This document shows, in pieces, positions 9,824 to 15,641 of a stretch of 64,000 nt of DNA; within the stretch, counting starts at the first letter, position 1, and each line of letters begins with the position of its first letter. Under the pieces are notes generated by a model. The model saw only the letters and a list, made by a program, of their open reading frames with translations, had not been told where the DNA came from and did no database searches. The stretch is from Nitrospinaceae bacterium (GTDB taxonomy: Bacteria; Nitrospinota; Nitrospinia; Nitrospinales; Nitrospinaceae). Position numbers and translations under genes: made by a program. The stretch covers positions 1 to 64,000 of the forward strand of contig JAHELC010000009.1 of the NCBI GenBank assembly GCA_024644405.1, in the 5' to 3' direction.

Positions 9824-10408
9824 ATGAGCACAGGAATCTTAATCTTTTTGGGAATTTTCCTCTTCGGGGCACTGGCCATCATCGGCTACTTCGTAACGAT
9901 CTACAACGGCCTGATCTCCCTGAAGGAAAACATCAAAAAATCGTGGTCCAACATCGACGTCATCCTCAAACAGCGTCACGATGAACTTCCCAAGCTGATT
10001 TCCGTCTGTGAAAGTTATGCGGAGTTTGAAAAAGGCGTTCTGGACCGTCTCATGAAAGCCCGCGAAAAATACTTCAAGGCGAAGGGTGTTGCCAAAAAAT
10101 CGGAAGCCAGCAACGAAGTGACTGCGGCTCTGCAAGGCATATTCGCCCTGGCAGAAAATTACCCCGACCTGAAAACCAACAAGAACTTTATGCAACTGCA
10201 GGAACGCATCTCCCATCTGGAAGAAACCCTGGCGGACCGGCGGGAATTCTACAACGACAGCGTCAACAACTACAACATCCGTATCAAACAAATCCCGGAC
10301 GTTCTCGTTGCGGGCATGCTCAATTATCAGGACGAGGAAATGTTCAAAGTCAGCCAAAAAGAACGCGAGGATGTCAAAATCAACATCAAGATTCCCAAGT
10401 TCACTTGA
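9824..10408 (+). CDS. lemA: LemA family membrane-anchored protein
   Basis: A 194-residue protein with one N-terminal membrane helix (residues about 3-25) followed by a long helical LemA domain. Family signs are the LKENIKKSWSNIDVILKQRHDELPKLI segment, YPDLKTNKNFMQLQ, and the later RREFYNDSVNNYN. The molecular function of LemA is not settled; it is thought to be a membrane-associated helical bundle exposed outside the cytoplasm. AAAGG directly before ATG 9824 and GGAAGG further up serve for initiation. It is followed by two GIDE-like genes in the same direction, an association that recurs in prokaryotes. Confidence 0.95.
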   Translation: MSTGILIFLGIFLFGALAIIGYFVTIYNGLISLKENIKKSWSNIDVILKQRHDELPKLISVCESYAEFEKGVLDRLMKAREKYFKAKGVAKKSEASNEVTAALQGIFALAENYPDLKTNKNFMQLQERISHLEETLADRREFYNDSVNNYNIRIKQIPDVLVAGMLNYQDEEMFKVSQKEREDVKINIKIPKFT

Positions 10409-10446
10409 GTTGTTTTGCATAGGCTATAACAGATCCAGCAGTAACC

Positions 10447-11472
10447 ATGAGTGGAATCCATATAGAAGGCAGTGAACCGATCATAGCCCTGGCAGGTCTG
10501 GGCCTCGGCATTTACTTTTTCTTCGCTGGCTTCAGGGAACTCAAATCCAAGCGCATCCTCCAGAATATTCCCACCTCTAAAATAAACACCGGCGCTGTCG
10601 GGACCAACGTCGAGGTCACCGGCCGGATCGTTTGCGAAAAAGATCAAATTGTTCATGCCCCGATCAGCGGACGACCCTGTGCCTTTTACTCCATAGAAAT
10701 TCAACGCTGGGAACGGAACCGCAGTAACCGCGGTAGCTCGCTGGGGGGCCACAATTCCCGAACCGGGTTCAACAGAGGGCGTTGGGTCACGGTCGAAAGT
10801 TTTCATTCGGGAAAAGGGTTTTTTATCGATGACAGCAGTGGCGCCAATGCCATGGTATTGGTCAATGGTGCAATCATCAAAAGAAAAGGCGGCACCCAGG
10901 ACTTCGAGACACAGTCCAACAAATTCGACCAGATGCCCGCAGGATTGCGACAAGCTCTTGAGACCAACCAAAAAAAATTGAGAAAATTCAAACTGAAAAA
11001 CTCCTCATGGCTTTTTTCAAACCGGTTCCGGTTCCGGGAATGGTATTTCCCGGTGGGTGAAACAATCTTCGTTCTCGGCCACGCGGAGTCCGGACTGCGG
11101 GCTCCCAAACGCAATAAGCTGAAGTTCAAAACGTTTCTTAAAGCCAAAAAGGCCATTCAGGAAAACGACAAACTGAAAGCGCGTTTCGATACCAATCAGG
11201 ACGGCAAGCTGGACGAGGCGGAGCTGGAACGGGGCGCCAAAATACTGGCACAGCGACTGGAATCAAAACACAACCCGAAGAAGCTGGAAGATCTTGCCGC
11301 AAAAACCAAGATGGTGTTCAAACAAAAAAAACCCAATCCGTTTTACATCAGCAATATGTCGGAAAAGGAATTGATCAAGGACCTGGCAACCTGGTCGACC
11401 TTGAAAATCTGGGGAGGGCCCGTTTTAAGCACCGGGTGTGCGGCCTACCTGTTCATCGTGTTGTTCCCCTAA
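10447..11472 (+). CDS. GIDE/MULAN-like membrane protein with one EF-hand, copy 1
   Basis: A 341-residue protein with a membrane helix at about 9-28 and another at the C-terminus (about 322-340). Between them is a domain resembling the part of the mitochondrial E3 ligase MULAN/GIDE that lies between its membrane helices, with the family-like NIPTSKINTGAVG and a later APISGRPCAFYSIEIQRW. No RING finger is present, so ligase activity is not implied. Residues 248-259 form a perfect EF-hand loop (DTNQDGKLDEAE), flanked by helices, so calcium binding is likely. It follows lemA by 38 bases and precedes a paralogue. The role is unknown. Confidence 0.8.
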   Translation: MSGIHIEGSEPIIALAGLGLGIYFFFAGFRELKSKRILQNIPTSKINTGAVGTNVEVTGRIVCEKDQIVHAPISGRPCAFYSIEIQRWERNRSNRGSSLGGHNSRTGFNRGRWVTVESFHSGKGFFIDDSSGANAMVLVNGAIIKRKGGTQDFETQSNKFDQMPAGLRQALETNQKKLRKFKLKNSSWLFSNRFRFREWYFPVGETIFVLGHAESGLRAPKRNKLKFKTFLKAKKAIQENDKLKARFDTNQDGKLDEAELERGAKILAQRLESKHNPKKLEDLAAKTKMVFKQKKPNPFYISNMSEKELIKDLATWSTLKIWGGPVLSTGCAAYLFIVLFP

Positions 11473-11485
11473 ACCAGAACCTCTT

Positions 11486-12463
11486 ATGCCAATGTCTTCA
11501 AACAATGACGGCGATCTGATTATGGGGGCTGCGATCGGCGCGGTCATGGGCATCGTCTGGTTTTTTAAAGGCTTCCATGAACTCAAAATCAAGCGCACCA
11601 TCCAGAACATTCCCACCTCCAAGATCAATACCGGCGCTGTGGGAACGGATGTCGAGATCAAGGGTAACATCATTGCTGAAAAAGAAAGGCTGGTCACCGC
11701 CCCGATCTCCGGACAACAGTGCGCCATCTACCACATGGAAATCCAGGTCGAGCGGCGCCGGAAAAACAGCACTTACTGGGTGACTATCGACCGATATTAT
11801 TCGCACGAAGGGTTTTATGTCGACGACCAAAGCGGAGCCACCGCTCTAGTCCTGGCGGAGGGAGCCCGGGTCAACCGTAAAGGCAAAACCAATAATACCT
11901 ATTTCAGCTCCAGCGATCTGGATGAATTGCCGGACTTGTTGCGGAAATCCCTCACGAAAAACCAACACAAGCTGAAAAAATTCAAATTCAAAAAAACCTC
12001 CTGGTTATTCTCAGAAAAATACCGGGTTTTGGAATGGTATTTTTTGCCCGACGAAGAGGTCTATGTCCTGGGTCACGCCGTATCCGGGTTGCGTTTTGAA
12101 AAAATCAAAAAGCCCCGGCTCAAGCACTTCCTGCAAGCCAAAAAGGAAATTCAGGGAGACAAGAAACTGACAGCCCGGTACGATGCCAACGCGGACGGCA
12201 CCCTGGATCACAATGAATTGGAACGAGGCGCTCAGATTCTGGCGCAGAGGTTTTCGGATCAATACAGCAAGGAGAAACTGGAAGCGCTCATCCCAAAAAC
12301 CAAACTGATTTTTAAAAAAAAGAAACCTCACCCCTTTGTCATCAGCAACCGTCCGGAGCAAGAACTGGTCAGCCACATGGGAACGTGGTCGGTCGTCAAA
12401 ATCTGGGGCGGACCCATCCTGACCGTGGCCTGCGTATTTTATCTATACACCCTCTTCAGCTGA
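11486..12463 (+). CDS. GIDE/MULAN-like membrane protein with one EF-hand, copy 2
   Basis: A 325-residue paralogue of the preceding gene with the same plan. It has an N-terminal helix (about 12-30), the NIPTSKINTGAVG segment, APISGQQCAIYHMEIQ, then TSWLFSEKYRVLEWYF, a perfect EF-hand loop at 233-244 (DANADGTLDHNE), and a C-terminal helix after TWSVVKIWGGP. The glycine/arginine-rich insertion of copy 1 after the ISG motif is absent. I start it at ATG 11486, 13 bases after the previous stop, because the open frame upstream lies inside copy 1; ATG 11492 is an alternative. The 3' end nearly touches the convergent symporter gene. Confidence 0.8.
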   Translation: MPMSSNNDGDLIMGAAIGAVMGIVWFFKGFHELKIKRTIQNIPTSKINTGAVGTDVEIKGNIIAEKERLVTAPISGQQCAIYHMEIQVERRRKNSTYWVTIDRYYSHEGFYVDDQSGATALVLAEGARVNRKGKTNNTYFSSSDLDELPDLLRKSLTKNQHKLKKFKFKKTSWLFSEKYRVLEWYFLPDEEVYVLGHAVSGLRFEKIKKPRLKHFLQAKKEIQGDKKLTARYDANADGTLDHNELERGAQILAQRFSDQYSKEKLEALIPKTKLIFKKKKPHPFVISNRPEQELVSHMGTWSVVKIWGGPILTVACVFYLYTLFS

Positions 12464-14557: not shown

Positions 14558-15067
14558 TCATGCCATATCAGGAGTTTTGGGTGGCTGGGAAAAACGCTCG
14601 TTCTTGAATAGATCAATAAACATCATACCGACACCCAGGGTGATACAAGAGTCCGCCACGTTGAACGTAGGAAAGTGATGCCCCTGTATAAAAAAATCCA
14701 GCCAATCGACGACTTCCCTGTACGCTATTCGGTCGATAAAATTCCCAATCGCACCGCTGAAAATCAATATCAATCCCCAGTGTATCAGCTTTCGGTTCCC
14801 GGGAGCCTGATGAAAAAAAAACAGAATGGCGGCAATGGCAATAATCGAAAAGCCGATCAGAAACCAAGCCATCAAATCCGAATTATACTCCGCAAACAAA
14901 CTGAAGGCCACCCCGGTATTGCGTACGTGCGTCAACGCAAAAAGTTTGTCGATGACGAGAAAGGAATGATTTTTGGGAATGTGGGTAATGATCCAAAATT
15001 TGGTGTACTGATCCAAAAAGATCAGAAAATTGGAAACCAGAAAGAGAAGAAGATATTTATTTTTCAA
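14558..15067 (-). CDS. lspA: lipoprotein signal peptidase, copy 1 (downstream)
   Basis: Aspartyl protease of the inner membrane that removes the signal peptide from diacylated prolipoproteins. The 169-residue protein has four membrane helices, the family motifs LDQYTK and VRNTGVAF, and both catalytic aspartates: D112 in GNFIDR and D139 in FNVADS. The start is TTG 15067, aligned with the start of the neighbouring paralogue; no ATG fits in frame. It is followed by lgt after 53 bases. It is about 60% identical to the other copy by ungapped hand alignment. Confidence 0.94.
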   Translation of the reverse strand: MKNKYLLLFLVSNFLIFLDQYTKFWIITHIPKNHSFLVIDKLFALTHVRNTGVAFSLFAEYNSDLMAWFLIGFSIIAIAAILFFFHQAPGNRKLIHWGLILIFSGAIGNFIDRIAYREVVDWLDFFIQGHHFPTFNVADSCITLGVGMMFIDLFKNERFSQPPKTPDMA

Positions 15068-15131: not shown

Positions 15132-15641
15132 TTAGACAACATCAGAAGAGTCTCCGGATCGAGGGATTTTTCCGATGCGGATGAGATCCATAAACATCAA
15201 CAGGACTCCAATGGTAATACAGGAGTCGGCAATATTGAATGCAGGCCAATGATAACTTCCATAAAAAAAATCAAGAAAATCGATCACTTCCTGGTACAGG
15301 ACCCGGTCGATCAGGTTCCCAATCGCTCCACTGAAAATCAGAATCAACGCAACACGAACTATTTTATTTTCTTGCGGCGTCTGATGAAAAAAAATCAGAA
15401 TAGCAACAATGGCAATGACCGAAAAACCGATGAACAAATAGGTCTTGAGCTCAGACGGCCCTTCTGCAAATAAACCGAACGCCACCCCGGGATTGCGAAT
15501 ATGGGTGATCGCAAAAAAATTATCTATTACCATTATATAACGATGTTTCGGAATATGGGCATTAACCCACATTTTGGTGTATTGATCCAGAATGATCAGA
15601 ACATTGGAAGCCAGGAATAAGTGAAGATACCGGTTGCTCAC
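15132..15641 (-). CDS. lspA: lipoprotein signal peptidase, copy 2 (upstream)
   Basis: Second, full-length signal peptidase II with the same 169-residue length. The catalytic aspartates are again at 112 (GNLIDR) and 139 (FNIADS), and the VRNxGVAF-like motif reads IRNPGVAF. The start is GTG 15641, six bases after the ileS stop, so the gene is probably read through from ileS, the same ileS-lspA order as in many Gram-negative bacteria. This makes it the likely ancestral copy, with copy 1 arising by tandem duplication. Both look catalytically intact, so they may split substrates or expression conditions. Confidence 0.94.
   Translation of the reverse strand: MSNRYLHLFLASNVLIILDQYTKMWVNAHIPKHRYIMVIDNFFAITHIRNPGVAFGLFAEGPSELKTYLFIGFSVIAIVAILIFFHQTPQENKIVRVALILIFSGAIGNLIDRVLYQEVIDFLDFFYGSYHWPAFNIADSCITIGVLLMFMDLIRIGKIPRSGDSSDVV

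What the first reader, a model, noticed from the sequence alone, without database searches (positions are those of the whole stretch)
9824..12463. LemA followed by two tandem GIDE-like membrane proteins, each with one perfect EF-hand
LemA (9824-10408) is followed directly by two paralogues of a GIDE/MULAN-like membrane protein, both lacking a RING. Each has one canonical EF-hand loop (DTNQDGKLDEAE and DANADGTLDHNE) in the same place before a C-terminal helix. A calcium-responsive accessory added to the known LemA-GIDE neighbourhood is suggestive of an uncharacterised membrane module. A single EF-hand per chain suggests pairing between the two paralogues, which would give one canonical EF-hand pair.
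Basis: partly seen in the sequence, partly recalled or inferred. Interest (0 to 1): 0.62.

Follow-up and report, generated by a model that had tools for sequence, protein, structure and literature searches.

The report
LemA operon with calcium-binding GIDE-type proteins
A little-known bacterial membrane protein (LemA) is encoded next to one or two relatives of a mitochondrial membrane protein (GIDE/MAPL) that carry a strongly conserved calcium-binding loop, and the same pairing recurs in at least three bacterial phyla, which suggests an undescribed calcium-responsive membrane module.

Summary
lemA (9824-10408) is followed by two GIDE/BAM paralogues, A (10447-11472) and B (best start 11486, to 12463). 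Both lack a RING, and each has one canonical EF-hand loop in the same place. The genome is Nitrospinota. The loop is not a local oddity: all 26 intact Nitrospinota homologues keep it, and so do 21 of 22 Elusimicrobiota proteins at 20-27% identity (the other differs at loop position 6) and 12 of 12 full-length Desulfobacterota matches. Loop positions D1, D5, G6 and E12 are among the twelve most conserved of 308 columns. lemA is adjacent in nearly every case, upstream or downstream; GIDE relatives without the loop mostly lack lemA. AlphaFold gives a confident helix-loop-helix. The positive-inside rule puts the BAM and EF part in the cytoplasm. Best reading: LemA plus a cytoplasm-facing, Ca2+-binding GIDE/BAM partner whose contact with LemA Ca2+ controls. 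Anatomy, distribution and coupling are shown; Ca2+ binding, LemA contact and cellular role are inferred. No held paper mentions LemA, GIDE and EF-hand together.

The parts
9824..10408 (+). lemA, 194 aa, one N-terminal TM helix, cytoplasmic helical domain predicted
   Evidence: PF04011 159 bits; first gene of the putative operon
10447..11472 (+). GIDE-EF copy A, 341 aa: TM1, BAM/GIDE beta domain, EF hand, C-terminal GIDE motif, TM2; no RING
   Evidence: PF12483 39.6 bits; AlphaFold model pLDDT 89, pTM 0.73
11188..11223 (+). EF-hand loop of copy A, DTNQDGKLDEAE (residues 248-259)
   Evidence: D1, D5, E12 in 48/49, G6 in 47/49, N/D3 in 48/49 homologues
11125..11265 (+). helix-loop-helix insert of copy A (residues 227-273)
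   Evidence: helices 227-239, 241-247, 257-273, block pLDDT mostly 93-97
11486..12463 (+). GIDE-EF copy B, 325 aa, 52-54% identical to copy A; no RING
   Evidence: PF12483 23.9 bits; own clade
12182..12217 (+). EF-hand loop of copy B, DANADGTLDHNE
   Evidence: direct reading; same alignment columns as copy A

Best explanation
lemA and the two following genes form a small membrane module. LemA is anchored by one N-terminal helix with its helical domain in the cytoplasm. Each GIDE-EF protein is anchored by a helix at each end, with the BAM beta domain and a single EF hand between them, also facing the cytoplasm. The EF hand sits between the beta domain and the second membrane helix. The likely mechanism is that a rise in cytoplasmic Ca2+ loads the EF hand, its second helix moves, and this changes how the BAM domain meets LemA or other GIDE subunits, switching the assembly or activity of a LemA-based scaffold at the inner membrane. 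The two copies in this genus come from a duplication and work as interchangeable or specialised versions, not as an obligatory pair. Shown: gene order, domain anatomy, strict conservation of the loop, and coupling to lemA. Predicted: helix-loop-helix and topology. Inferred: Ca2+ binding, contact with LemA, switching, and the cellular role.
For: Loop kept in 26/26 intact Nitrospinota proteins, 21/22 in Elusimicrobiota with the last differing only at G6, and 12/12 alignable full-length Desulfobacterota matches. The loop positions D1, D5, E12 and G6 rank 6, 7, 8 and 12 of 308 columns although the proteins are only 20-27% identical across phyla, so the metal ligands are under selection. lemA is adjacent on the same strand in 20/20 Nitrospinota loci. 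In the other two phyla, 32 of 34 loop-bearing GIDE proteins have lemA nearby: 31 within about 1.5 kb, one about 1.5 kb downstream, and the other two lie at or near contig ends. Of 10 loop-less relatives, only 3 have lemA (Fisher p about 1e-4, ancestry not corrected). Order varies (lemA first or second) and coupling persists. A natural GIDE-LemA fusion exists (L121). In Nitrospinota the two genes come and go together: 23 genomes have both, 2 have GIDE fragments only, 4 have a LemA only. Topology: K/R are richer after the TM that precedes BAM in 40 proteins and poorer in 2; proteins with two N-terminal TMs and the Desulfobacterota proteins with a soluble N-terminal domain fit BAM-in. EF identity: the profile hits EF-hand chains in the PDB at E = 4e-7.
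Against: No binding or interaction data exist. Single, unpaired EF hands often bind Ca2+ weakly. Pfam EF-hand cut-offs are not reached by the window proteins. LemA usually occurs without GIDE-EF (144/199 genomes in the Elusimicrobiota sample have LemA, about 22 have GIDE-EF), so GIDE-EF is not general to LemA. The natural fusion, a Desulfobulbaceae protein and a second Elusimicrobia copy lack the loop, so LemA coupling can outlive it. The human relative has its BAM domain on the opposite side (intermembrane space; PMC4457424).
Confidence: 0.5

Rival explanations
1. The loop binds Ca2+ permanently as a structural staple (or faces the periplasm, where Ca2+ is millimolar), so it stabilises the protein but does not sense anything.
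For: Single EF hands in bacterial enzymes can be structural (lytic transglycosylases, own knowledge); strict ligand conservation is also expected for a structural site; human BAM lies in the intermembrane space (PMC4457424).
Against: Charge distribution and the two-TM or soluble N-terminal versions predict a cytoplasmic site, where free Ca2+ is low at rest; loop-less copies remain apparently intact (L073, L123).
Confidence: 0.3
2. One reading: copies A and B pair through their EF hands into one canonical EF-hand pair (heterodimer).
For: Both genes lie in one operon in G000, G004 and G007 with intact loops; position 8 of the loop is aliphatic in nearly all sequences, as in paired EF hands.
Against: A exists without B and B without A in sister species, and single-copy species dominate, all with intact loops. 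In the Elusimicrobia tandem pair the second copy has lost its loop.
Confidence: 0.07
3. The loop binds Mg2+ or no metal in vivo and is kept as a protein-protein contact; LemA adjacency reflects old co-inheritance only.
For: No binding data; Pfam EF-hand scores are below curated cut-offs.
Against: Glu at position 12 (48/49) and all other ligand positions fit Ca2+ specificity; gene order flips while adjacency persists, which plain co-inheritance does not predict.
Confidence: 0.13

Closest known systems
MAPL / MULAN / GIDE (MUL1), eukaryotic BAM-RING protein; Pfam PF12483
   Same: BAM/GIDE beta domain between two membrane helices; family match above the curated cut-off
   Different: No RING, as in other prokaryotic BAM proteins (PMC4457424); an EF hand is inserted between BAM and TM2; predicted orientation is opposite; linked to LemA
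LemA family, including magnetosome protein MamQ
   Same: PF04011 LemA with N-terminal TM; [quoted passage not shown]
   Different: MamQ equivalog model scores 77 against a cut-off of 250; no magnetosome genes were recognised next to it
Bacterial EF-hand proteins (e.g. EfhP, calmodulin-like fusions in PMC7016017)
   Same: Canonical DxDxDG loop with helix-loop-helix
   Different: Those are counted as EF dyads and the listed fusions do not include GIDE or LemA; here there is a single EF hand in a membrane-anchored BAM protein

Membership tests
GIDE/BAM (PF12483) | Profile match above curated cut-off | tested here: met
   39.6 and 23.9 bits against 23.6
GIDE/BAM (PF12483) | BAM domain between two TM helices | tested here: met
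   hydropathy and AlphaFold helices 9-40 and 306-339
MAPL/MULAN E3 ligase | C-terminal RING finger | tested here: not met
   protein ends at TM2; no RING in Pfam scan
MAPL/MULAN E3 ligase | BAM in the intermembrane space / outside, termini in the cytosol | tested here: inconclusive
   positive-inside rule favours BAM in the cytoplasm in 40 of 43 proteins scored; prediction only
EF hand | 12-residue loop with D1, N/D3, D5, G6, hydrophobic 8, E12 | tested here: met
EF hand | helix-loop-helix | tested here: met
   model helices 241-247 and 257-273 around loop 248-256
EF hand | paired EF hands (dyad) in one chain | tested here: not met
   pattern scan finds one loop per chain in both window proteins and in all family rows but one, L074, whose second match is non-canonical
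EF hand | Ca2+ binding | not testable with these tools
   needs purified protein
LemA (PF04011) | Profile match above cut-off and N-terminal TM | tested here: met
   159 bits; TM residues 5-23
MamQ (NF040966) | equivalog cut-off 250 bits | tested here: not met
   77 bits

The most novel reading that the evidence does not exclude
LemA and EF-hand GIDE form a previously undescribed, widely spread bacterial module in which cytoplasmic Ca2+ directly controls a LemA scaffold at the inner membrane. This would give a bacterial Ca2+ signal a defined membrane target, and would give the prokaryotic relatives of MAPL and the LemA family their first shared function.
Probability: 0.38. Interest if true: 0.72.

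Novelty: new variant of a known kind. Interest (0 to 1): 0.55.

Why it matters
LemA proteins are widespread and almost without known function, and the ancestral role of the MAPL/BAM domain is an open question (PMC4457424). A conserved Ca2+ loop in LemA-linked BAM proteins across three phyla gives both families a concrete, mutable handle (D1 and E12 of the loop). It also offers a candidate membrane target for bacterial Ca2+ signalling, where few are known.

Tried and rejected
PDB fold search with the copy A model gave nothing at E <= 0.001, so the BAM fold has no recognised solved relative there. Sequence search of the PDB with copy A alone gave only weak hits. Plasmid search with P0002 found nothing; with P0004 it found only distant haloarchaeal GIDE proteins, whose matches stop before the loop. 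The MamQ/magnetosome reading was rejected (score far below cut-off). The A-B heterodimer was rejected as a general model. L149 and L150 were dropped from the counts: they are multi-EF proteins without a GIDE domain. Remnants of B were sought downstream of A in G001 and G002 and none were found. Phyla other than Nitrospinota, Elusimicrobiota and Desulfobacterota could not be reached as search centres, so the full distribution is unknown.

Full report
OBSERVATION. LemA (9824-10408) scores 159 bits against PF04011. Copy A (10447-11472) and copy B score 39.6 and 23.9 bits against PF12483 GIDE, cut-off 23.6, and no RING is found. Copy B most likely starts at ATG 11486, as its orthologues do. Each has one canonical EF loop at the same alignment columns. 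In the window only these two of 86 frames match a PS00018-like pattern; chance per protein is about 0.001.

WHERE IT COMES FROM. The closest homologues are titled mostly Nitrospinota, Nitrospinaceae or Nitrospina, so the window comes from that phylum. Of 77 genomes of the phylum, 25 have a GIDE-EF match. lemA lies directly upstream on the same strand in all 20 loci read. The tandem A+B state is confined to the window's genus (G000, G004, G007). G001 and G002 have A only, G005 and G006 have B only, and other genera have one copy. A and B are separate, well supported clades. This is a duplication at or before the base of the genus, followed by losses.

THE LOOP IS OLD AND CONSTRAINED. In 49 aligned proteins from Nitrospinota, Elusimicrobiota and one Desulfobulbaceae, D1, D5 and E12 are present in 48, G6 in 47, and N or D at position 3 in 48. 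Those positions rank 6, 7, 8, 12 and 24 of 308 columns, while cross-phylum identity is 20-27%. In Desulfobacterota, 12 of 12 alignable proteins with full-length matches carry the loop. Eleven of these are 619-710 aa long, with an extra N-terminal domain; the twelfth, L146, is 369 aa. The family profile matches EF-hand proteins of known structure in exactly this region, best E 4e-7.

COUPLING TO lemA. In Elusimicrobiota, lemA is upstream or downstream of GIDE-EF; in Desulfobacterota it is downstream, often within a few bases or overlapping. Loop-bearing GIDE proteins have lemA nearby in 32 of 34 cases. L087 was resolved by reading more DNA; the two exceptions lie at or near contig ends. Loop-less relatives have it in 3 of 10. 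The three are a Desulfobulbaceae protein, a second copy in an Elusimicrobia tandem pair, and a natural Sel1-GIDE-LemA fusion. Fisher p is about 1e-4, uncorrected for shared ancestry. The profile used for collecting was built mostly from loop-bearing proteins. The loop-blind Pfam profile recovers the same Elusimicrobiota genes: of 14 genomes hit, 12 have the canonical loop, one (G203) a near-canonical loop, and one (G193) is the LemA fusion. LemA itself is far commoner (144 of 199 genomes), so GIDE-EF accompanies a subset of LemA proteins. In Nitrospinota the two are nearly one to one.

STRUCTURE AND TOPOLOGY. AlphaFold on the alignment gives pLDDT 89 and pTM 0.73: TM1 9-40, beta domain about 52-215, helices 227-239 and 241-247, the loop, helix 257-273, a short helix 278-285, TM2 306-339. 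The EF hand is an insert between the beta domain and the family's C-terminal motif. No solved structure resembles the model. K and R are more abundant after the TM that precedes BAM in 40 proteins and less so in 2. Many Elusimicrobiota and Desulfobacterota members have two TMs there, with the N-terminus inside. Both facts place BAM and the EF hand in the cytoplasm. LemA has the same pattern (TM 5-23 followed by a basic stretch). The human relative is oriented the other way (PMC4457424).

MECHANISM. The most economical reading is a LemA-based membrane complex whose GIDE-EF subunit responds to cytoplasmic Ca2+. Strict ligand conservation argues for metal binding. Coupling, order changes with adjacency retained, co-loss (G025, G019, G024) and a natural fusion argue for working with LemA. 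The switching step and the cellular role are inference. A structural Ca2+ site is the main rival. The proposed A-B pairing is unlikely as the general mode, because each copy exists alone with an intact loop.

KNOWN OR NEW. No paper in the held library contains LemA, GIDE and EF-hand together. The MAPL evolution study reports prokaryotic BAM proteins without RING and mentions neither EF hands nor LemA (PMC4457424). A survey of bacterial EF-hand architectures lists many fusions but not this one in its main text (PMC7016017). MamQ is described as the only LemA member linked to a process (PMC4902198). Subscription journals and domain databases could not be checked. I rate it a new variant of a known kind.

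Noticed in passing
L135-L145 (Desulfobacterota), N-terminal ~260 residues: GIDE-EF is fused behind an extra N-terminal domain. Its AlphaFold model (most blocks pLDDT 70-92) resembles ClpS and the ribosomal L7/L12 C-terminal domain in the PDB (prob 1.00, TM 0.67-0.74 to target, but E only 0.1-0.15).
   Followed up: partly
L121:763-3312 (-): Single 850-aa frame with Sel1 repeat, GIDE and LemA domains in one protein, without an EF loop: a natural GIDE-LemA fusion.
   Followed up: partly
window 14558-15067 and 15132-15641 (-): Two tandem ORFs of 169 aa that look like lspA (signal peptidase II) paralogues, next to ileS and lgt-like genes (by eye, not run through Pfam).
   Followed up: no
L024 (G025), L025 (G024), L026 (G019): Decayed GIDE copies in related Nitrospinota; lemA is lost or fused to the remnant in the same genomes, suggesting co-loss.
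   Followed up: partly
L053:3911-5014: Desulfobulbaceae lemA-GIDE pair in which the insert is kept, somewhat longer, but the EF ligands are gone.
   Followed up: partly
L052:3983-5695: Elusimicrobia lemA followed by two tandem GIDE genes; only the first keeps the EF loop. An independent parallel to the window's tandem arrangement.
   Followed up: partly
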